Source: Verrucomicrobiota bacterium (lineage in GTDB: Bacteria > Verrucomicrobiota > Verrucomicrobiia > Limisphaerales > UBA9464). From it: a DNA stretch of 64,000 nt. Below the pieces are notes generated by a model that was given only the letters and a program-made list of their open reading frames with translations, had not been told where the DNA came from and made no database searches. The stretch covers positions 116,641 through 180,640 of the forward strand of contig JAFLEF010000009.1 of assembly GCA_017309115.1 (NCBI GenBank). The letters run 5' to 3'. Positions 34,055 to 61,075 of this stretch are shown in pieces. Numbering within the stretch: the stretch's first letter is position 1; the number at the start of each line of letters is the position of its first letter. The position numbers and the translations under genes were made by a program.

Positions 34055-34345
34055 GTGAAAGTCGCCAGTGTAACCGATTTGAAGAATGGTCTCTCCGCCT
34101 ACCTCAAGGAAGTGGTTTCCGGGGAGACCGTCCTCGTGATGGATCGGAAGAAGCCGGTCGCGGTTTTCCAACCCATCACCTCGGAGTACGGGGACGAGCG
34201 GCTCGCCGGTTTGGTCGCGTCAGGAATCGTGAGTGCACCGGCCGGGCGATTGGACCTGGAGGCCTTCTTCGCTGAGCCGAGAGGCTTGACGCCCAATCCT
34301 TCGGGACTCACCGGGGCGCTTCTGGAGGAACGGGAGGGGCGATGA
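34055..34345 (+). CDS. Phd/YefM-type antitoxin
   Basis: This 96-aa protein starts at GTG 34055 and reads MKVASVTDLKNGLSAYLKEV, then GETVLVMDRKKPVAVFQPI, the Phd/YefM N-terminal DNA-binding fold. The C-terminal part (after about 55) is variable, as usual for the toxin-binding tail. Its stop overlaps the toxin start by four bases (ATGA at 34342). It should repress its own promoter. Confidence 0.88.
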   Translation: MKVASVTDLKNGLSAYLKEVVSGETVLVMDRKKPVAVFQPITSEYGDERLAGLVASGIVSAPAGRLDLEAFFAEPRGLTPNPSGLTGALLEEREGR

Positions 34346-34761
34346 TCTTCTGGGATAGTTCCGCGTTAACTCCGCTCCTCATTACGGAGGCTGAATCGGA
34401 ACTACGTGAATCGCAGTTGAAGGCCGACCCGCGGATGCTCGTTTGGTATGGCACCCGCGCCGAGATCGAATCCGCTCTGGCCCGCAGAAAACGCGAAGGT
34501 TTCCTCGACCCGGGTGCTGAAAGCACCGCGCGAAAGCGACTTGCTTGGCTCGAAGAGGCGTGGGCGGAGGTGGCGCCGTCAAGGCAGGTTCGCGACCGTT
34601 CCCTCCGACTCCTCCGCATCCATCCACTCCGCGCTGCCGATGCGTTTCAGTTGGCGGCAGCTCTCGTGGCCTGCGGCGATAATCCGGACGGCTGGGACTT
34701 TCGCACCGCTGATCTCCGGCTGCGAACTGCCGCCGCACTGGAAGGCTTCAAGGCGACGTGA
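34342..34761 (+). CDS. VapC-type PIN-domain toxin
   Basis: This 139-aa PIN-domain protein is translationally coupled to the Phd-like antitoxin. Acidic residues of the PIN active site are visible: D5 in IFWDSSALTPL, E in TRAEIESALAR, D in LRAADAFQLAAAL and D in FRTADLRLRTAA. PIN toxins of this class cleave tRNA or rRNA when released from the antitoxin. The pairing with Phd rather than VapB-type antitoxin is common for this branch. Confidence 0.88.
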   Translation: MIFWDSSALTPLLITEAESELRESQLKADPRMLVWYGTRAEIESALARRKREGFLDPGAESTARKRLAWLEEAWAEVAPSRQVRDRSLRLLRIHPLRAADAFQLAAALVACGDNPDGWDFRTADLRLRTAAALEGFKAT

Positions 34762-35130: not shown

Positions 35131-35712
35131 TTAGGTGGCGAGAAACAAGTCCCACGCGGGAACTTGATGCGGATTGCGAATCAAGACCGTTGCCGGCAAT
35201 TCCGGCGGCGGCTGCGGCGGACGCTTCAGCTGGAGACCCGCCTCGTGCGGCAGTCGGTTGCCCTTGCGGGTGTTCACGTCGCGGGCGGACCACACCAGGT
35301 TCTCCCAAGTGTTGGGACCGCCTCGGGAGCGCGGAATCACGTGATCCAGGCTGCCTTCCGCCGGGCCGAGCAGGCGACCGGTGTACTGGCAGCGAAATCC
35401 GTCGCGCTCTCGAATGGAACGCGCGTTGAGCGGGGGCCGCCGCTTCGGAACCCGACCGAAGTTCACGGCAATGACCACCGTGGGAACCCGGACGGGTCCA
35501 CGCACCGTCGCCACCGCACGGTCTTCCGGACGGATGGGCAGGTGCAGCCACTCGGACCAACGGACCGGCCGGAGTTGGCTGGGCGTGATGTCGAGGGCGG
35601 TGGCCGAACCCGCGGCCAGCTGACAAAAAGCTTCGGCGGGCGTGCGGGTGTCGATGGCTTGCCAGTGCCGGTTCAAGACCAGCACCACATTCAGATTCAG
35701 CAGGGAGTCCAT
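35131..35712 (-). CDS. HNH endonuclease domain protein
   Basis: The ATG at 35712 gives 193 aa; a longer frame opens to 36144 but runs through a tRNA and cannot be coding there. The N-terminal part (LNLNVVLVLNRHWQAIDT, PAEAFCQLAAG) is typical of a widespread bacterial HNH group, and the C-terminal HNH fold has RDGFRCQYTG, LDHVIPRSRGGPNTWENLV and CNTRKGN-like DVNTRKGNRLP. The catalytic D-H pair is present; the first CxxC cysteine pair is reduced (CQYT). It lies next to a tRNA and the retron-type RT, but on the opposite strand. Members are usually housekeeping-like and of unknown role; a defence partner role is speculative. Confidence 0.82.
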   Translation of the reverse strand: MDSLLNLNVVLVLNRHWQAIDTRTPAEAFCQLAAGSATALDITPSQLRPVRWSEWLHLPIRPEDRAVATVRGPVRVPTVVIAVNFGRVPKRRPPLNARSIRERDGFRCQYTGRLLGPAEGSLDHVIPRSRGGPNTWENLVWSARDVNTRKGNRLPHEAGLQLKRPPQPPPELPATVLIRNPHQVPAWDLFLAT

Positions 35713-35743
35713 GGTGGAGAGGAGGTCAGGGGTGGAGGTGAAG

Positions 35744-35817
35744 TGCCGTCGGGAGGATTCGAACCTCCAACCTTCCCGTTCTGAGCGGGACGCCTCTGCC
35801 AGTTGGGCTACGGCGGC
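35744..35817 (-). tRNA. Class I tRNA with anticodon CAG (identity uncertain)
   Basis: The reverse strand folds as a 74-nt cloverleaf: acceptor GCCGCCG/CGACGGC with one C-A mismatch, a short D stem (GCC/GGC), anticodon stem TCCCG/CGGGA with loop CTCAGAA (anticodon CAG), variable loop AGGTT, and T arm GGAGG-TTCGAAT-CCTCC. CCA is not encoded. CAG reads leucine CTG codons, yet bacterial tRNA-Leu normally has a long variable arm, as the one at 23103 does. Isoacceptor identity therefore remains open. Confidence 0.75.
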
Positions 35818-35882
35818 AAGAAATGGGTGAAACTGGATTTTGGCCTTTGCCCGGTCGGGAACTCCCGATAACGAAGGCCCGC

Positions 35883-36037
35883 GGGCGATGCTCCAAGCCG
35901 GCAATGCCGACCTGTTCGTCGTTGCCTCTCCGGGGTTACCCCGGGGGATCTCGTTAATGCCTCGTCCCAGCGCGCGAGCGTAATTCCGCTTCACGGAAAT
36001 CTGCTCCCGCCCGACTCGTCGCGTTGGAGCATCGTCC
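35883..36037 (+). ncRNA. Candidate retron msr-msd RNA
   Basis: A 14-bp inverted repeat bounds this segment: GGGCGATGCTCCAA (35883-35896) pairs with TTGGAGCATCGTCC (36024-36037), with one G-T wobble. This is the expected a1/a2 stem of a retron primer-template RNA. Inside are a CGGC-AAT-GCCG hairpin directly after a1 (35899-35909), a 9-bp hairpin around CCGGGG-TTA-CCCCGG (35927-35947) and a TTCCG/CGGAA hairpin (35984-35998). The base right after a1 is AGCC, similar to the AGC that holds the branching G in characterised retrons. The segment ends 14 bases before the reverse transcriptase start. The branch G and msd boundaries are inferred. Confidence 0.6.
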
Positions 36038-36051
36038 CGCTTCGGAATCAG

Positions 36052-37407
36052 ATGACACCCACGGAAGAGCGTTGGATTGCGAGTCTGGCGAAGATGGCGC
36101 TGGCCGGTGAATGGGAGGCGGCGGCGTTGCTCGAACGCGGCCAAGTCTGGCTTGGGTCACGGCCTCGTTGGTGGCTCCGTCTGGTGCATCGGTTGCTACG
36201 CCAGTTTGGCCCGGGAACTCGACCCCGGCTGAGCCGCGTGGAGTCGTTTCTTCGACGCGATCCCTGGCTGAGAAAAGTGCTCCTCAAGGGCGACTTGAAA
36301 GGGGACGCGAATCCACCCGAACCGGTCCAGTGCGCGGCCCGTGGACGGCCTGCCACGTGGAAGCTGCCCTCCTTCACGCGGCCGGTAGAACTCGCTTCCT
36401 GGCTGAGGGTGTCCGTGGGTGAGTTGGAATGGTTGGCCGATGCCCAGGGTTGGCGGAGCGGGGAGGCGTGCGAACGCCTGGGGCACTATCACTACCGCTG
36501 GCTCCGGAAGCGGGACGGATCGGCGCGCCTCATCGAATCGCCGAAGCAGCATCTCAAATTGATTCAGCGCGGCCTTCTCGACGCCGTGGTCTCGGCCATT
36601 CCGGCCCACGAAAGCGCCCATGGGTTTCAGCCGGGCCGTTCCACGCTGACGCACGTGGGTCCGCACATTGGCCGGGAGGTCGTACTGAAGTATGACCTGC
36701 GGGACTTCTTTACGCGGGTCACCCGGCCTCGCGTGCAAGCGGTGTTTCGCACGGCCGGATATCCTGAGGCGGTGGCGGCGCTCTTGGCGGCGTTGTGCAC
36801 GCATCGGACACCGGCTCGAATCTGGCGGCAGTTTCCGGGATTTGAAACGGATCCGCTGATTCGGGCGCGTGCCCGGAACTGGCAGTGCCCGCATCTGCCG
36901 CAAGGGGCGCCCACGTCGCCGGCTCTGGCGAACTTGGTGGCGTACCGACTGGACTGCCGCCTGGCGGGGTTGGCCAAGGCGGCGGGGGCGTCCTACACGC
37001 GGTATGCGGATGACTTGTTGTTCTCCGGCGGGTCCGAGTTGGCCCGGGGTGCCGAACGCTTCGGCATCATGGTGGGTGCCATTGCGCTGGAGGAAGGATT
37101 CGAACTCAACACCCGGAAGACCAGAGTCCTGCGCCGCGGCGTTGCCCAACGGGCGGTGGGCTTGGTGCTAAACGACCGGATCAACGTGCCGCGGGCGGAA
37201 TACGATCGGCTCAAGGCGATCCTGCATCACTGCGTCCGTCAGGGGCCGGCGGGTCAGAATCGGGAAGGCGTTCCCGATTTTGCCGCACACTTGGCCGGCC
37301 GGGTGGCGTACGTGACACAGACGAATCCCCAGCGAGGCGCTCGTTTGCAACAGTGGTTGGACCAGATCGACTGGTCGCGGTCGTCCGAGTCCGCGGCGGC
37401 GACCTGA
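36052..37407 (+). CDS. Retron-type reverse transcriptase
   Basis: This 451-aa protein has RT motifs in order: YHYRWLRKRDGSARLIESPK (near 144-163), SAHGFQPGRS, then HVGPH in the place of the retron NAxxH element, YDLRDFF with catalytic D215, LPQGAPTSPALAN from L282, and YADD at 318-321 with D320 and D321. The QRAVGLVLNDRINVPR segment near 365 corresponds to the retron VTG motif in altered form. An extra N-terminal helical region of about 110 aa is reminiscent of myxobacterial-type retron RTs. Start at ATG 36052 lies directly after the candidate msr-msd. No group II intron maturase or CRISPR context is present. An effector gene is not evident. Confidence 0.87.
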   Translation: MTPTEERWIASLAKMALAGEWEAAALLERGQVWLGSRPRWWLRLVHRLLRQFGPGTRPRLSRVESFLRRDPWLRKVLLKGDLKGDANPPEPVQCAARGRPATWKLPSFTRPVELASWLRVSVGELEWLADAQGWRSGEACERLGHYHYRWLRKRDGSARLIESPKQHLKLIQRGLLDAVVSAIPAHESAHGFQPGRSTLTHVGPHIGREVVLKYDLRDFFTRVTRPRVQAVFRTAGYPEAVAALLAALCTHRTPARIWRQFPGFETDPLIRARARNWQCPHLPQGAPTSPALANLVAYRLDCRLAGLAKAAGASYTRYADDLLFSGGSELARGAERFGIMVGAIALEEGFELNTRKTRVLRRGVAQRAVGLVLNDRINVPRAEYDRLKAILHHCVRQGPAGQNREGVPDFAAHLAGRVAYVTQTNPQRGARLQQWLDQIDWSRSSESAAAT

Positions 37408-37573
37408 ACCAGAACCACTCCTACCGCGAATGGACGCAAATGGACGCCAATAGAAGAGGCAGTGGGGGCCACCGATGAATGAGAGACCACAGTCCTTGGC
37501 TATTCGCGTGAACTCGCGTCTATTCGCGGTTCCCGTTGCCTGACGGGAGCGCAGCGTACGCTGGGTCTAAAGG
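37408..37573. other. Intergenic region after the RT, holding an inverted-repeat element
   Basis: After the RT stop, a 108-bp inverted-repeat element (listed separately) occupies most of the region up to the first tRNA-like gene. Confidence 0.5.
37423..37530. repeat. Long inverted-repeat element (ACCGCGAATGGACGC type)
   Basis: Left arm 37423-37453 (ACCGCGAATGGACGCAAATG...) and right arm 37500-37530 are 31 bases each and pair with about six mismatches; the 46-base centre is unpaired. Each arm itself is built of about three 10-base units of the form ACGC-AATGG. A left arm alone recurs at 38531. Confidence 0.7.
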
Positions 37574-37646
37574 TGGTGGCGGGAGGTGGAATCGAACCAC
37601 CGGGACCTGGCTTATGAGGCCTGGTTTGGAACCGTCCATTCCCGCA
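37574..37646 (-). tRNA. Compact tRNA-like gene, anticodon CAT (Met-like)
   Basis: 73 nt on the reverse strand: acceptor TGCGGGA/TCCCGCC with a mismatch at position 1-72 (as in initiator tRNAs), encoded ACCA, small D arm (TGGA-CGGT-TCCA), anticodon loop CTCATAA on a CAGGC/GCCAG stem with one mismatch, and normal T arm GGTGG-TTCGATT-CCACC. Loop CTCATAA and the 1-72 mismatch resemble initiator tRNA, but the D loop is too small for a standard one. It could be a pseudo- or phage-type tRNA. Confidence 0.6.
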
Positions 37647-37653
37647 GTGAACG

Positions 37654-37728
37654 TGGGTTGGCCAATGGGACTTGCACCCATACTGCCGCGTCCACAACGC
37701 GGAGTGCTGCTCTTACACTATGGTCAAC
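37654..37728 (-). tRNA. tRNA-His (GTG), unusual T loop
   Basis: 75 nt on the reverse strand, seven bases upstream of the CAT gene in transcription. Extra G at -1 pairs with C73, the hallmark of tRNA-His, and CCA is encoded. Acceptor TTGACCA/TGGCCAA has one A-C mismatch. D arm GTG/CAC, anticodon stem CCGCG/CGCGG with loop TTGTGGA (GTG), T stem ATGGG/CCCAT. The T loop is TGCAAGT instead of TTCAAxT and the D loop lacks the GG pair, so the usual D-T loop contact is absent or altered. Confidence 0.75.
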
Positions 37729-38530: not shown

Positions 38531-38562
38531 ACCGCGAATGGACGCGAATGAACGCCAATGGA
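38531..38562. repeat. Left arm of the ACCGCGAATGGACGC element
   Basis: A 32-base stretch nearly identical to the left arm of the element at 37423, made of three ACGC-AATG units. It sits just after the dnaE2 stop codon; no right arm is visible. Confidence 0.55.
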
Positions 38563-38574
38563 AGAAGCGATGGA

Positions 38575-41500
38575 TCAGCCGAAGTCGTGGGAGGCCGATG
38601 CCGCCAGAGGTCCGTAGTCGAGGCGTTCGATGCGCCGGGCTTTCACGTGAATCGTGCCCTCGCGATTCTGCACGTCGCCCTCAATCATCAGGAATGGTTC
38701 CTGGGTGATGGTCAGTCGCTCTTGTTCGAACAAGTCCGAGGAAACGATCGCGTTGGTAATGCCGGTTTCGTCTTCCAGACTCACGAAGCAGATGCCCTTG
38801 GCGGTGCCGGGACGCTGACGGCAGATGACTTGGCCGCCCACTCGCACGCACTCGCGATCCCGGGCTAAGGTCAGATCGGTGGCCCGCCACAAATCAGGGA
38901 ATCGATCCCGGACCAAGGCCATCGGATGCGGCCCGGTGGAGAGTCGCAAGCTGCCGTAGTCGGCGTTGAGCCGCTCGAACGGCGACATCGGCGCGAGTGG
39001 GGCGGGGGCCGTCGTCGTGGTGGTCGGTGCGGAATCGAGCAGATCGTCGAAGTGGCGTCGTTCCGCTTCCCAGAGCGCGGCGCGACGATGCGGACTAAAG
39101 GCGCGGAAGGCTCCAATCGACGCCAGACGACGCAGTTCTTCCTGACGTAGTCGGGTGCGGCGTTTGAAATCCTCCAGCGAGCGAAACGGGGCTCGCTCCC
39201 GCTCGGAAATCAGTTGGGCCACGGCTTCGCGGCGCAGGCCTTCGACCTGACGGAAGCCAAGGCGCAAAGAGCTGTCGGCTTCGAGCTGGCAGTCCCAATC
39301 CGATTGGACGGCGCAGACGGGACGCACCGGGACGCCGTGGGCTTTGGCGTCTCGGATCAACGTGGCGGGCGAATAGAAGCCCATCGGCTGATTGTTCAGC
39401 AGGGCGCAGAAAAACTCCGGAGCGCGATGGGCTTTGAGATACGAGCTGGCGTAGGCGAGGTGGGCGAAGCTGATCGCATGGGATTCGGGAAATCCATACA
39501 GCGCGAACGATCCCACCGCGCCCACGATCTGTTCCGCCACGGCGTCGGAGACACCGCTGCGGGCCATGGCGGCGCGGAGCTTGGCGGTGGCGCGGGCCAT
39601 CTTTTCGTCGGACCGATGAAAGCTGAGGGCCCGGCGCAGTTCCTCGGCTTCGGAACCGCTGAAGTTCGCCATGACCATCGCCATCGCGAGCATCTGTTCC
39701 TGAAACAGCGGAACCCCCAGCGTGCGTTCTAAAATCGGTTTGAGTCGCTCTTCGCCGCCGAAGTAGGTGACCGGTTCCTCGCCATTGCGCCGAGCGAGGA
39801 ACGGGTGTGCCAGTCCGCCTTGAATGGGTCCCGGTCGGATGATCGCCACTTCAATCACCAGATCGTAGAACTTGGCCGGCTTCATTCGCGGCAGGGTGGC
39901 CATCTGCGCCCGGCTCTCGATCTGGAACACGCCGATGGTGTCGGCGCGGCGAATCATCTCGTACGTTTGCGGATCGTTCTCCGGAAGATTCGCGAGGTCC
40001 ACCGGGCGTTGGCGCAACTCACAGAGGCGGACCATTTCCTGCAAGGCGGCCATCATGCCGAGGCCGAGCAGATCAATCTTGATGATGCCCAGGTCTTCGC
40101 AGTCGTCCTTGTCCCATTGGGCGACGACCCGACCCGGCATGGCGGCGTTCTCGAGCGGCACGAAGCGGTGCAGTTGATCCTGACAAATGATCATGCCGCC
40201 GGAGTGCTGACCCAAGTGACGGGGCAATCCGCTGATCTGCTGGTACAGCGACACGAAGGCGGGAGCTCGTGGATGCGCTGCGGGAAGTCCGGAACGTTCC
40301 AGCTGGCCTATGAGTTCCAGCGTGTGCGGGAAGTCTCCACTGGCGAAGAGCGCGCTGAAGCGGTCCAGCAAATCGACGGGCAACCCCAGCACCTTGCCGA
40401 TCTCCCGGGCGGTACTGCGGCCGCGGTACGTGCTGACGGCCCCGGTCATCGCCGCGCCGTGCGGGCCGTAACGCCGGTACACTTCCTGAATGACTTGTTC
40501 CCGGCGATCACCGCTGGGCAGGTCGATGTCGATGTCCGGCCAACCCTTGCGGGATTCGCTGAGAAAACGTTCGAACAACACTTCGAAGCGGACGGGATCG
40601 ACGGCGGTGATCCCGAGGCAAAAGCAGACCGCGCTGTTCGCCGCGCTGCCGCGTCCCTGGGCCAGGATGTCGTGTTCGCGGCAGTACCGGACCAGGTCCG
40701 CGACGATCAGGAAATAGCCGGCGAACCCCAGCTTCTGGATCAGCGCCAGTTCCTTGACCAGCAGGCGGGAAACTTTGTCCGGAATCTTCGGTCCGTAGCG
40801 TTGGTGGGCGCCGCGGTAGGTCCATTCCTTCAGCACCCCTTCCATGGTTTCGCCTGGGCCGACGGGAAATTTGGGAAACTCGTAGCCGAGGTCACTGAGT
40901 TCGAAACGCAGACGCTCGGACAGTCGGACCGTGTGCCGCAGCGCTTCGGGGAGATCGGCGAAGAGCGCGGTCATTTGGGCCGGCGACTTCAGGTGGCGCT
41001 CGGCGTTAACACTGAGCAACCGGCCGGCACCATCCAGCGTGGTGTGGTGGCGCAGACACGTGAACACGTCGCTGACCTGACGTCCCTCCGGAGCGGCGTA
41101 GCTGACGCCGTTGGTGGCGAGAAGGGGCAGTCGGCGGGATTGCGCGAGGTCTGTCAGAGCCTGGTTGATCCGCTCTTCGCCGCGCTGATGATGCCGCTGA
41201 AGCTCCACGAACACCTGTTCCGCTCCGAACGTTTGTTGCAGCCGATCCAACGTGGAGGCGGCCTGTTCGCGGCCGGCGGGGGCGGTTCGGGCTCCGAGCA
41301 GGCTGCGGCGCAAGGGGCCTTCTTCGTCACCGGTCAGCGCGATCAGGCCGGCGGAGAATTCCGGCAACTCCTCCCAACGCACCACGCCTTCGCCCTTGGG
41401 AGCGCGCAGATGCGCCCGGGTGAGCAGGCGGCAGAGGTTTTGGTAACCGGTGCGATTCTCGACCAGGACAGGCAGTACGCCGCCGTCGTCCAGGACCAGT

Positions 41501-41751
41501 TCCGCGCCGAAGATCGGATGGAGCCCGGCATCCCGCGCGGCGCTGGAGAAGCGGGGCGCGCCGTACACGCCCATTCGATCCAGCAGGGCGAGCGCGGGAA
41601 GTTCCAGCGAAGTCGCGCGTTCCGCCAGCGTGCTCGGCTGGGAACCTCCGCGCAAGAAGCTGAACGCACTGCGGGCGTGAAGTTCGACGTAGGAGGACAC
41701 GGGGCGGGATCCGGCGCGACGGGTCAATCCCCGAGACCTTCGAGCGTCCAC
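38575..41751 (-). CDS. dnaE2: Error-prone DNA polymerase III alpha-like subunit (DnaE2/ImuC)
   Basis: The frame starts at GTG 41751 (1058 aa), overlapping imuB by 28 bases; a second GTG at 41700 (SSYVELHARSAFSFL) would give 1041 aa and fits the conserved start better. It has an N-terminal PHP domain (YVELHARSAFSFLRGGS, ALLDRMGVYGAPRF), the polymerase palm with PDIDIDLPSGDR, and the C-terminal helix-hairpin and OB-fold region (VRVGGQVICRQRPGTAKG). DnaE2 does mutagenic translesion synthesis with ImuA and ImuB after DNA damage. It is the last gene of the imuA-imuB-dnaE2 operon. Confidence 0.92.
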   Translation of the reverse strand: MDARRSRGLTRRAGSRPVSSYVELHARSAFSFLRGGSQPSTLAERATSLELPALALLDRMGVYGAPRFSSAARDAGLHPIFGAELVLDDGGVLPVLVENRTGYQNLCRLLTRAHLRAPKGEGVVRWEELPEFSAGLIALTGDEEGPLRRSLLGARTAPAGREQAASTLDRLQQTFGAEQVFVELQRHHQRGEERINQALTDLAQSRRLPLLATNGVSYAAPEGRQVSDVFTCLRHHTTLDGAGRLLSVNAERHLKSPAQMTALFADLPEALRHTVRLSERLRFELSDLGYEFPKFPVGPGETMEGVLKEWTYRGAHQRYGPKIPDKVSRLLVKELALIQKLGFAGYFLIVADLVRYCREHDILAQGRGSAANSAVCFCLGITAVDPVRFEVLFERFLSESRKGWPDIDIDLPSGDRREQVIQEVYRRYGPHGAAMTGAVSTYRGRSTAREIGKVLGLPVDLLDRFSALFASGDFPHTLELIGQLERSGLPAAHPRAPAFVSLYQQISGLPRHLGQHSGGMIICQDQLHRFVPLENAAMPGRVVAQWDKDDCEDLGIIKIDLLGLGMMAALQEMVRLCELRQRPVDLANLPENDPQTYEMIRRADTIGVFQIESRAQMATLPRMKPAKFYDLVIEVAIIRPGPIQGGLAHPFLARRNGEEPVTYFGGEERLKPILERTLGVPLFQEQMLAMAMVMANFSGSEAEELRRALSFHRSDEKMARATAKLRAAMARSGVSDAVAEQIVGAVGSFALYGFPESHAISFAHLAYASSYLKAHRAPEFFCALLNNQPMGFYSPATLIRDAKAHGVPVRPVCAVQSDWDCQLEADSSLRLGFRQVEGLRREAVAQLISERERAPFRSLEDFKRRTRLRQEELRRLASIGAFRAFSPHRRAALWEAERRHFDDLLDSAPTTTTTAPAPLAPMSPFERLNADYGSLRLSTGPHPMALVRDRFPDLWRATDLTLARDRECVRVGGQVICRQRPGTAKGICFVSLEDETGITNAIVSSDLFEQERLTITQEPFLMIEGDVQNREGTIHVKARRIERLDYGPLAASASHDFG

Positions 41752-43376
41752 TGCTGGGCTCGTTTAACCAGGCGGACCACGTCACCCCGTTCGGTTTCCA
41801 CGTCCCATTCTTCGGCGGACCAACCGGACTCCCACCAGCCACCCGAGGCTCGAAGCGGACCCACGGCCCGGCGGATTCGGCCGGAGATACCGGCACTGGA
41901 GAGAGATACGGGTTGCTCAGTGGCCGGAGTATTCACAGGAGGGAGAGCGGCGGGCGGCGGAGGCGGAACCGGCGCAGGAGTTTCCTTTTGGAACACGGGT
42001 GAGAGCATGGCGGCGATCTGCTCCGAACTCAGCTGCGGCGTGGGTCGGTGGGTTCCGAAAAGAGCCGAGGCAGCGGACGGTGCGGTGGGGTGGGGGGACG
42101 TCAGCCGCACTTCGACGCGCACGGCGCGGGCAGGCCGCAGACGCCGCAGCGGGGTGACGGAGTGCAGCCACGCGCCGGCTTCGGGAGCGGGGACGGGCGC
42201 GTTCTCGAAATCGGGCGGAACCATCCGGAAGGCATCGGGTCGGTGGGAATTTTCCCGGAGTGGCGAGCCGACGCGGTCGGATCCGACCAAGGCGCTGAGT
42301 CGAGCCAAGGTTTCCTGGAACTGATGCGGATCCCGCACCGCGGCTTCGAACAGGCTGAACTGACGCTGCCGAGGCCGGGTGGGTTCGGCGGACAATCCCA
42401 CGCCCACCACCGGAGCATCGGTGCGAACCGATTCCAGATGCGTTTGCAGCGTGCGGAAGAGCGCCTCGGGTTGGCGGGTGGGCTCGGGCAACCGCAAGCG
42501 GTGCTCCTTGGCTTCCCCGGATTCCAGCCGTAGCCGCAGCGTGAGATGTTCCGCTGCGAGTCCCAGGGCTTCGAGGCGCTGGCCGAAGGAATCCACGAAG
42601 CGCCGAAGGAGAAACAGCAGTGGTTCCAGGGTCTCCACGTCATGTTCGAAATCCCAAGATTCCTCGAAGCGTTCGGCCGGCCGGATCAGGTGCAGCGGGC
42701 GCAGGGCGGTGGTGGACGCCGCGGCGAACAGGGCCAGCGCTTCCAGCCCGAGCCGATCGGACAGCTCGGCCTGACCCAACGCCAGGAATTCCCCCACCGT
42801 GCGAACGCCCCACTGCTGAAGAATTGTCGCGACGTGCGGAGTGGGCTCCAGAGCGGCCACCGGCAGACTCGCGACAAACTCCCCGGCGTGGCCCACCACA
42901 TGCACATCGCCCGACCACAAGGCGGCATGCCGGGCCAGATTGGGAGTGGCGCCGATGCCCACCTGCACGCGCAGTCCCAGGGTTTGTACCGCCTGTTGCA
43001 GACGTTTTCCCCAATTCGGCAGAGCGGAGGTGTGGGCGGCTTCGACGAGTCCGCGCAAATCAAGGGTGATCAGTCCCGGGCCGGTGGTTTCCAGATTGGG
43101 GGAGAATCCAAAGGCCACCTGGACCACGGCGTCGGTGGCGGCGGCTTCCTGCGCTGGCGACCGATGACGCAGGGCCACCTCGCGACATCGGGCTAGTGCC
43201 TGCGGAGGATTCAGGCCGTCCACCACCCCGGCGGTCCGAGCGGCCGGCGTGGCGGTGAGGACCCGCGGAACGTTGGCGGAGGGATCGACCAAGGCGATCG
43301 GCCGCGACCACGCGTCGGGTTCGTGGCGCAGGGCGGCCTGCAGCAGGAAATCCGGGAGATACAGAACGGCGAACAT
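41724..43376 (-). CDS. imuB: ImuB, inactive Y-family polymerase-like protein
   Basis: The ATG at 43376 (MFAVLYLPDFLLQAAL) gives 550 aa. The N-terminal Y-family fold is present, but the catalytic acidic residues are replaced: the first motif reads LYLPDFLLQA where active polymerases carry D-x-D-x-F-F. This is typical of ImuB, which serves as a hub between the beta clamp, ImuA and DnaE2. The little-finger region has LRPLHLIRPAERFEESWDFE. A C-terminal Pro-rich stretch (about 450-490) precedes a conserved tail (SGRIRRAVGPLRASGGWW, SAEEWDVE). The gene sits seven bases after imuA. Confidence 0.9.
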   Translation of the reverse strand: MFAVLYLPDFLLQAALRHEPDAWSRPIALVDPSANVPRVLTATPAARTAGVVDGLNPPQALARCREVALRHRSPAQEAAATDAVVQVAFGFSPNLETTGPGLITLDLRGLVEAAHTSALPNWGKRLQQAVQTLGLRVQVGIGATPNLARHAALWSGDVHVVGHAGEFVASLPVAALEPTPHVATILQQWGVRTVGEFLALGQAELSDRLGLEALALFAAASTTALRPLHLIRPAERFEESWDFEHDVETLEPLLFLLRRFVDSFGQRLEALGLAAEHLTLRLRLESGEAKEHRLRLPEPTRQPEALFRTLQTHLESVRTDAPVVGVGLSAEPTRPRQRQFSLFEAAVRDPHQFQETLARLSALVGSDRVGSPLRENSHRPDAFRMVPPDFENAPVPAPEAGAWLHSVTPLRRLRPARAVRVEVRLTSPHPTAPSAASALFGTHRPTPQLSSEQIAAMLSPVFQKETPAPVPPPPPAALPPVNTPATEQPVSLSSAGISGRIRRAVGPLRASGGWWESGWSAEEWDVETERGDVVRLVKRAQQWTLEGLGD

Positions 43377-43383
43377 GGTGGTG

Positions 43384-44058
43384 TTACCCCACGGCTTCCT
43401 GCGCGGCCCCTCCGGCGGCGGCGGTCGAGCGCAACAGTTCAAACGACAGGGTCTGGGCCGTGACGTCCGGTCCGGCCTGGAGCGTCGCCAGATTCAACCG
43501 ATTGGCCATCCGGACCCGGCAGGCGGCCCCGGAGACCAGGGGCAGCGGCGTGAGGACCAGGGCGGTGGTGCCCTGATGTTCCGTGAGCCGATGGAACCGG
43601 TGCCAGAGACTGGAGGAAATGCGGCGTAATTCGGCGACGGGACACAGCTTCAGGTCGATGACCACCCGGGACAGATTGCGGTCGCGCAGGAGAATGTCGG
43701 CGGCCTTCAGCGCTTCGTCGGCACTGCGGCTGCGGACCCAGAGCAAGCGGGCCAATACCGCGGGTTCGAGGGCGTCCACGTCCAGGCTGTCGGCACCATC
43801 GGCGAGGGCGAGGAACTGGCCTTCCTGAGCGGTCTGACGAATCCAGGCATGGAGGACCTGGGCGCTACCGGACCCGGGTCCGTCGCCGACCAGTTCCGAG
43901 ACTTCCCCGCGGGGCCAGCCGCCGCCGAGTTGGGAATCCAGAGCGGGCAAGCCGGTGGCCAGCACGTCCCGTTGGGGCGTGGCGCGGGGTCGGACTGCCG
44001 CTCCAAACCGTTCAGCCAGGAGGCGGCGCAGATCCACGATGTTGCTGGCGTCGGGCAT
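43384..44058 (-). CDS. imuA: ImuA, RecA-like mutasome accessory protein
   Basis: This 224-aa protein has the layout of ImuA, a RecA-like protein that works with ImuB and DnaE2. GLPALDSQLGGGWPRGEVSE recalls the start of the RecA core; the Walker A equivalent reads GDGPGSGSAQVL and lacks a standard Lys-Ser/Thr. VVIDLKLC and TALVLTPLPLVSG fit later core strands. It is the first gene of the reverse-strand imuA-imuB-dnaE2 operon. I did not find a clear LexA or other SOS box upstream. Confidence 0.82.
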   Translation of the reverse strand: MPDASNIVDLRRLLAERFGAAVRPRATPQRDVLATGLPALDSQLGGGWPRGEVSELVGDGPGSGSAQVLHAWIRQTAQEGQFLALADGADSLDVDALEPAVLARLLWVRSRSADEALKAADILLRDRNLSRVVIDLKLCPVAELRRISSSLWHRFHRLTEHQGTTALVLTPLPLVSGAACRVRMANRLNLATLQAGPDVTAQTLSFELLRSTAAAGGAAQEAVG

Positions 44059-60299: not shown

Positions 60300-61075
60300 T
60301 GCGCGGGTCTCCGTCTCTGGGATTTCCGGGCGCCGGGGGCTTCCTGAGGGGAGGTTTTTAACCGCAGATTAAGCACAGATTGACGCAGATTTTTGGGGAA
60401 GGAATTGGGGTTGGGGTTTTGGAGTTTGGATCGGGTGGAAGTTGGTAACGTCTCAGGGATTGAGCGTTGACCTGGCCGGCTCGTTCCTCTTCCCGGCTTT
60501 GAAAAGAATCTGCGTGAATCTGCGCTTAATCTGCGGTTCCACTTCTTCGGGGTTCCTGGGCGCGAGGGTTTCCACAGAGGGGAGGTTTTTAACCGCAGAT
60601 TAAGCACAGATTGACGCAGATTTTTTGGGGAGGAATTGGGGTTGGGGTTTCGGAGTTTGGAACGCGTGGAGGTTGGCGACGTCCCAGGGATTGAGCGTTT
60701 TCCTGGCCGGCTCATTCCTCTTCTCCGGCTTTGAAAAGAATCTGCGTGAATCTGCGCTTAATCTGCGGTTCCACTTCTTCGGGGCGCCGGGGGCTTCCTG
60801 AGGGGAGGATTTTAACCGCAGATTAAGCACAGATTGACGCAGATTCTTGGGGAAGGAATTGGGGTTGGGGTTTTGGAGTTTGGATCGGGTGGAAGTTGGT
60901 AACGTCTCAGGGATTGAGCGTTGACCTGGCCGGCTCGTTCCTCTTCCCCGGCTTTGAAAAGAATCTGCGATAATCTGCGCCTAATCTGCGGTTCCACTTC
61001 TTCGAGGTTCCGGGGCGGGTTTCCACCATCTCTCCCTCGCCTCGCCCGCCCGCCTTCGGTAGTCTCCGCCCCTTC
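60300..61075. other. Intergenic region filled by three tandem inverted-repeat elements
   Basis: About 776 bases without a real gene. Reverse-strand frames here are translations of the repeats (recurring NPNS and LNLRLK peptides). Confidence 0.6.
60325..61005. repeat. Three tandem copies of an inverted-repeat element (AACCGCAGATTAAG type)
   Basis: Units start with AACCGCAGATTAAGCACAGA at about 60360, 60591 and 60814, spaced about 231 and 223 bases. Each has a 32-base left arm, a 110-120 base centre that is over 90% the same among copies (GGAATTGGGGTTGGGG..., CTGGCCGGCTC...), and a right arm AATCTGCGTGAATCTGCGCT..., the reverse complement of the left arm with about two mismatches (four in the third copy). 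Arms are themselves built of about three 11-base AGATT units. Confidence 0.9.

What the first reader, a model, noticed from the sequence alone, without database searches (positions are those of the whole stretch)
35883..37407. Candidate retron: inverted-repeat-bounded RNA directly upstream of a retron-type RT
A 14-bp a1/a2-like stem (35883-35896 and 36024-36037) encloses 127 bases with three hairpins and an AGC right after a1, 14 bases before an RT with YADD and retron-type motifs. Retrons make msDNA and act in phage defence; few have been described in this phylum. The RT NAxxH and VTG elements are variant (HVGPH, AVGL), and the N-terminal extension is myxobacterial-like.
Basis: partly seen in the sequence, partly recalled or inferred. 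Interest (0 to 1): 0.85.

Follow-up and report, generated by a model that had tools for sequence, protein, structure and literature searches.

The report
Solitary retron with conserved structured RNA
A bacterial genome carries what looks like a genuine retron, a reverse transcriptase next to the folded RNA it should copy into DNA, and its family appears to have no linked partner toxin gene, unlike the retrons known to fight phages.

Summary
The inverted repeat (35883-35896 / 36024-36037, one G-U pair) is real: 0 of 400 shuffles matched it, and the RNA folds at z = -5.0. Across 15 homologous loci it is kept by compensatory changes: 12 of 14 a1/a2 pairs, 24 of 36 pairs overall. A covariance model from these finds the RNA beside family RTs left out of it, including actinobacterial ones. 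In 321 genomes of the order, 10 of 11 matches lie directly upstream of an RT of this family; the eleventh is weak, without such an RT. The RT is a retron RT: best PADLOC models RT_other and RT_outgroup, one 100/100 clade among retron RTs. So it is a retron, msDNA synthesis being inferred. No convincing effector lies beside it; in 19 loci the most shared neighbour is an ABC-type ATPase in 5. The RT has an N-terminal extension, as published for myxobacterial retron RTs. The ncRNA matched no Rfam 15 family at gathering score. Distribution is patchy, with broken copies. Function remains open.

The parts
   Evidence: changes on both sides in 12 of 14 pairs
35897..35897 (+). candidate branching guanosine (AAGC context) whose 2'-OH would prime cDNA
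   Evidence: G invariant in 15 of 15 aligned ncRNAs; role inferred from retron biochemistry as reviewed in PMC6868368 (passages)
35900..35926 (+). msr stem-loop 1 (variable loop)
   Evidence: MFE fold; 5 of 5 consensus pairs with changes on both sides, 78.7% of cells paired
35928..35946 (+). msr stem-loop 2, CTCCGGGG-TTA-CCCCGGGG, the most conserved element
   Evidence: 100% of cells paired, 6 of 8 pairs never vary
35972..36010 (+). msd hairpin, template of the predicted cDNA
   Evidence: helices 4 and 5
35950..36023 (+). predicted reverse-transcribed stretch (about 70 nt; both ends approximate)
   Evidence: inference from retron anatomy; no msDNA data
36052..37407 (+). retron reverse transcriptase, 451 aa
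36052..36351 (+). N-terminal extension of the RT (about 100 aa), weakly conserved within the family
   Evidence: no Pfam match there
36652..36666 (+). region X variant HVGPH (NAxxH site); last two residues PH in 17 of 17
37003..37014 (+). YADD catalytic box
37153..37164 (+). region Y start, AVGL at the VTG site

Best explanation
This is a two-component retron. One transcript would carry the structured RNA (about 35881-36040) and then the RT. The a1/a2 stem pairs; the RT binds the msr hairpins through its C-terminal region, primes from the 2'-OH of G35897 and copies the msd hairpin backwards from about 36023, stopping near 35950. The product would be a roughly 70-nt hairpin cDNA on a branched RNA (msDNA). 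Shown: the conserved, covarying RNA, its coupling to this RT clade, and the place of the RT among retron RTs. Inferred from known retrons: co-transcription, priming, cDNA ends, msDNA production. Function: most likely phage defence or a related stress response, because the system is patchy and several copies are broken, as is usual for defence genes (pattern, not proof). The effector, if any, was not found next to it and must act in trans or be the RT complex itself. Retron identity: about 0.95. Defence role: about 0.5.
For: Inverted repeat above chance and fold z -5.0. Covariation on 15 of the 19 ncRNAs found: 93.1% of cells paired against 77.2% shuffled, 24 of 36 pairs with changes on both sides, 0 of 500 shuffles as high, all slid registers far lower; a1/a2 alone 12 of 14 pairs. 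Model R1 found family members not used to build it: L039, L021, L022, L029, L028 at E 1e-5 or better and one in G903. R1 gave nothing above 20 bits in the non-family RT loci, and nothing above 16 bits in 80 viral RT loci. In 51 family genomes R1 hits the 6 that carry a full or contig-cut family RT and no other genome. RT: RT_other 6e-150, RT_outgroup 7e-142, the same two models best in 5 of 5 relatives tested; clade 100/100 among retron RTs. No linked effector.
Against: No transcript or msDNA data. A consensus scan found no sigma-70 promoter in 35700-37700, although TTGAC-like boxes sit just upstream of the RNA in several relatives (seen by eye). Curated NCBIfam retron models match below their cut-offs (173.5 bits against 235 for St85). 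N of NAxxH and V of VTG are replaced in 17 of 17 aligned RTs. AGC after a1 is kept in 13 of 15 ncRNAs of A2 (L015 has AGG, L023 AGT); of the 4 others, by eye, L021 has AGC, L028 AGG, L022 and L029 AGA. Pairing is not perfect: msr stem 1 pairs are broken in 1 to 5 of 15 sequences, two of three pairs of the inner msd helix in 4, and the outermost a1/a2 pairs in 1 to 4. My repeat finder listed the arms in 12 of 18 relatives; in L022, L025, L026, L027 and L029 it did not, and L042 was not run: there I read the arms by eye.
Confidence: 0.9

Rival explanations
1. A retron with an ordinary defence effector encoded elsewhere in the genome (in trans).
For: Retrons with known function are described as RNA-RT-effector systems (PMC12262390, passages). 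A second retron in the same genome, type XIII with a SWIM protein, shows the host carries such systems.
Against: No gene recurs next to the family in 19 loci beyond an ABC-type ATPase in 5. A trans partner was not searched for genome-wide.
Confidence: 0.3
2. The RT-msDNA complex is itself the effector, perhaps through the N-terminal extension, with no third component.
For: RT and RNA are the only parts found conserved in 19 loci, over Pseudomonadota, Actinomycetota and the window's own phylum; 17 of 17 aligned members carry 91 or more residues ahead of the position of residue 100.
Against: The extension is poorly conserved and has no Pfam match; its structure prediction did not return. Nothing shows toxicity.
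Confidence: 0.3
3. A neutral or decaying retroelement without present function.
For: Not found in the other 4 genomes of the genus, which are 70 to 93% complete. RT tails remain in G005 and G016, G504 has an RT that lacks an inner part, and G747 a TGA-split RT.
Against: The window copy is open throughout, and RNA pairing and RT motifs are conserved over long divergence.
Confidence: 0.15
4. Group II intron, DGR or Abi/DRT reverse transcriptase with an unrelated inverted repeat.
For: Shared RT fold only: TIGR04416 42.6 bits, Drt2 30.9 bits.
Against: Retron models reach 498.6 bits; tree 100/100; covarying RNA next to the RT.
Confidence: 0.01

Closest known systems
PADLOC retron RT groups RT_other (PDLC02949) and RT_outgroup (PDLC03740)
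   Same: Near full-length matches at 498.6 and 471.4 bits; best two models for 6 of 6 family RTs tested
   Different: Only the RT models were available; what their authors say of RNA and effectors could not be read
Myxobacterial retrons Mx162, Sa163, Mx65, Ne144
   Same: Extended RT N-terminus; priming G in an AGC context; N replaced at NAxxH in Mx65 (PMC6868368, passages read)
   Different: msd of Mx162 is 162 nt, here predicted about 70; Mx162 and Sa163 are described as likely vertically inherited, while this family is patchy; no sequence compared. That they lack a linked effector is recalled, not read
Retron type XIII (RT_XIII plus SWIM protein)
   Same: Next best model (312.7 bits)
   Different: Separate clade and own RNA; a SWIM_XIII gene lies upstream of the type XIII-like RT elsewhere in this genome, none beside this one
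Retron Ec86 (Eco1)
   Same: Closest solved structures by sequence, E 4e-30 to 6e-30
   Different: Eco1 has an accessory protein (PMC8989520, passages); none found here

Membership tests
Retron | RT belongs to the retron lineage | tested here: met
Retron | Adjacent msr-msd RNA closed by an a1/a2 inverted repeat | tested here: met
Retron | Priming G right after a1, usually in AGC | tested here: met
   G invariant in 15 of 15; AGC in 13 of 15 of A2. Presence of the G is tested, its priming is not
Retron | Region X NAxxH | tested here: inconclusive
   H kept in 17 of 17, A in 8 of 17, N in 0 of 17; the window has HVGPH. A survey reports one residue of the motif at 100%, A at 87% and N at 62% in retron-lineage RTs (PMC4244168, passages)
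Retron | Region Y VTG | tested here: inconclusive
   G kept in 17 of 17, V in 0 of 17: AAG 6, AVG 5, LAG 5, LTG 1; VTG in 47% of retron-lineage sequences (PMC4244168, passages)
Retron | Produces msDNA with a 2'-5' branch | not testable with these tools
   needs nucleic acid from cells
Tripartite defence retron | Associated effector gene or fused domain | tested here: not met
   No linked effector in 19 loci, some cut by contig ends; no Pfam domain besides RVT_1. A trans effector is not excluded
Retron type XIII | RT_XIII clade with SWIM protein | tested here: not met
   no SWIM match among the 9 neighbouring ORFs scanned
Myxobacterial retron group | RT clusters with Mx162, Mx65, Sa163, Ne144 | not tested
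Group II intron RT | TIGR04416 above cut-off and intron RNA | tested here: not met
   42.6 bits against 300; no Rfam intron hit in the window

The most novel reading that the evidence does not exclude
A widespread class of autonomous retrons made of RNA plus RT only, in which the RT-msDNA particle itself senses and acts, perhaps through its N-terminal extension, without any third component.
Probability: 0.25. Interest if true: 0.7.

Novelty: new member of a known kind. Interest (0 to 1): 0.45.

Why it matters
It adds a well-supported retron RNA family that matched no Rfam 15 family in the window or in 10 relatives' loci, with a compact RNA of about 160 nt that spans several phyla. Because RNA and RT are the only parts found conserved, it makes testable whether a retron can work without a linked effector, a question that, as far as I recall, the myxobacterial retrons also pose. 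The compact RNA could also serve as a new template for making single-stranded DNA in cells.

Tried and rejected
Rfam at relaxed threshold on 35840-36080 gave only ncS16 (14.9 bits, gathering 48, E 1.3): a shared GC-rich hairpin, rejected. The weak R1 match G026:C123 (30.2 bits, E 1e-3) lies between ORFs that I read by eye as RNase HIII-like and MutY-like; no family RT was found in its 3.1-kb locus; treated as chance. A tRNA-linked island was considered because tRNA-Leu and tRNA-His flank the retron, but no empty site was found: the left flank matches 18 relatives only in short pieces or not at all. The nearby HNH gene as effector was set aside: opposite strand, PtuB match only E 0.002, not shared by the other loci. 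Phage carriage: close relatives were not found in viral contigs; the best 80 of 165 distant ones are 36% identical or less and carry no R1 RNA; in phage records the listed matches are 32.2% or less.

Not obtained: the AlphaFold job (ticket) was still unfinished, so the fold of the N-terminal extension and any fold search are missing. The main classification paper (Mestre et al. 2020) and a review are not held, so what PADLOC's 'outgroup' stands for was not learned.

Limits: in the tree, 2 of 25 chosen retron-like rows and 9 of 18 chosen RVT_1 rows fell out because my motif pattern did not match, so DGR or Abi RTs may be unrepresented. Family members L005, L027, L039 and L061 were not in the tree; of other retron-like loci I did not choose L011, L047 and L049. 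L021, L022, L028 and L029 were left out of A2 because their arms differ in length or MAFFT misplaced them (one search holds all 19); with R1 L021 scores 104.9 bits, within the range of the training set, the other three 58.2, 33.1 and 47.2. Loci L051, L052, L053 and L054 end near the RT, so one flank is unseen there.

Full report
What is there. The window holds a 160-nt RNA region (35881-36040) followed after 11 bases by a 451-codon RT gene (36052-37407). The RNA folds far better than its shuffles (z -5.0, 0 of 200), and 0 of 400 shuffles of the region gave an inverted repeat as good. By my scan (at least 12 Watson-Crick pairs, at most one G-U) the 64-kb window holds 11 such repeats, 8 of them in one cluster, so conservation and not the repeat alone carries the case.

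Conservation. Searches with the RT and with PADLOC models gave homologs of this family in the same family, order and class, in the gammaproteobacterium Imhoffiella (for its class), in Burkholderia, Tsukamurella and Dietzia plasmid records, and in one further genome of Imhoffiella's phylum. A more distant RT from the same phylum (L024, 36%) has no such RNA. Upstream of 18 relatives an RNA with arms and the conserved hairpin was located, 19 with the window's; the repeat finder listed the arms in 12 of the 18, it did not in 5, and one was not run: the last six were read by eye. On 15 of these 19 (A2), 93.1% of cells of the 36-pair structure pair, 24 pairs show changes on both sides, and no shuffle of 500 reached these values; sliding the partners by 1-3 columns drops pairing to 42-49%. 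The a1/a2 stem alone has 12 of 14 pairs with changes on both sides. The inner helices have 12 of 22; there 7 of 500 shuffles reached that count and none the covariation score.

Coupling of RNA and RT. A covariance model R1 recovers members that did not train it: L039, L021, L022, L029 and L028. In that call no locus with a non-family RT scored above 20 bits; the best was a type XIII-like locus at 19.2 (L012). In 51 genomes of the family R1 hits 6, the same 6 that carry a full or contig-cut family RT, with one weak extra place in one of them; G005 and G016, which keep only RT tails, give none. In 321 genomes of the order it hits 10, each time beside a family RT, that of G504 lacking an inner part. 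In the window's own genome there is a single match. No Rfam 15 family reached its gathering score over the RNA in the window or in 10 relatives' loci.

The RT. PADLOC's best models are RT_other and RT_outgroup for the window RT and for 5 of 5 relatives tested. NCBIfam retron models match below cut-off but far above group II intron and Drt models. The nearest solved structures by sequence are Ec86 RT chains. In a tree of 48 RT cores the 16 family rows form one clade (100/100) within a retron side (100/100) apart from 9 other RVT_1 proteins of related genomes. YADD is intact in the window; the two actinobacterial members have YGDD. At NAxxH, H is kept in 17 of 17, A in 8, N in none; at VTG, G is kept in 17 and V in none. 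A survey of retron-lineage RTs reports VTG in 47%, and A and N of region X in 87% and 62% (PMC4244168, passages), so these variants weaken the motif argument without speaking against a retron.

No effector found. In 19 neighbourhoods of 5 to 20 kb, leaving aside the RT and ORFs that overlap it, the most shared gene is an ABC-type ATPase in 5 of 19 (ORFs of 70 aa or more, E 1e-8). Flanking genes differ from locus to locus; the two downstream neighbours of relatives that I scanned are a sigma factor and an FG-GAP protein. In the window the neighbours are an HNH gene and tRNA-Leu on one side, tRNA-His and a DnaE-type polymerase on the other; five small ORFs downstream match nothing in Pfam or PADLOC, while the HNH gene has a weak PtuB match (E 0.002). 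The RT itself has no Pfam domain besides RVT_1. Retrons without an apparent effector are not unheard of: Retron-Bth1 was so described (PMC12548924, passages).

How it probably works. By analogy with retron biochemistry as reviewed in PMC6868368 (passages), the RT would prime from G35897 and copy the msd hairpin into a cDNA of about 70 nt. This, the cDNA ends, and RNase H processing are inferences. The distribution (6 of 51 family genomes, 1 of 5 in the genus, some incomplete) and broken copies in G005, G016, G504 and G747 look like the turnover of defence genes, but that is an argument from pattern. I put defence or stress response at about one half and leave the acting part open between a trans effector and the RT complex itself.

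Novelty. It is a retron by anatomy and descent; its RT group is already modelled in PADLOC, so it is a new member of a known kind. Ten searches of the paper library listed no paper whose title or shown abstract describes this RNA family; only asked for Verrucomicrobia or Verrucomicrobiota, the phylum I guessed. I saw listings of these, and passages of seven papers. Subscription papers and the main classification paper are not held, so this is weak evidence of newness. The window's phylum was not told to me and I did not establish it.

Noticed in passing
G000:C35:174016-175017 (L013 1495-2784 and 2977-3789, - strand): The same genome holds a second retron: type XIII RT (RT_XIII 7e-129) behind a SWIM_XIII protein (2e-47), with its own inverted repeat of 22 bases (20 Watson-Crick pairs) that overlaps the end of the SWIM ORF.
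   Followed up: partly
L006 1504-1833 and 1953-2393 (G005): A retron RT tail (residues 367-443) is fused to a copy of an early stretch of an adjacent toxin-like (PIN by eye) gene; in G019 of the same genus the retron lies beside what look like remains of that gene (by eye), so the retron may have been lost by recombination in G005.
   Followed up: partly
L008 65-1279 and 1495-1725 (G016): A transposase-like ORF (by eye) directly precedes an RT tail of this family, apparently a retron broken by an insertion.
   Followed up: partly
window 37423-37530: A 15-base inverted repeat with arm ACCGCGAATGGACGC begins 16 bases after the RT stop; part of its word recurs at 38534, and a different repeat cluster sits at 60360-60993. 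They look like dispersed REP- or MITE-like repeats.
   Followed up: no
window 38575-43442, - strand: DnaE-type polymerase and an IMS-family (ImuB-like) protein, a possible mutagenic repair pair near the retron.
   Followed up: no
window 34055-34761: A Phd/YefM-type antitoxin with a PIN-like ORF (PIN below its cut-off), about 1.1 kb upstream of the retron.
   Followed up: no
L030, L043, L044, L045: Retron-like RTs that fall with L024 in one clade (95/90); upstream of these four lies a hairpin of the form GGYGNTTCGCC, like that upstream of the type XIII-like RTs (by eye); no R1 match.
   Followed up: no
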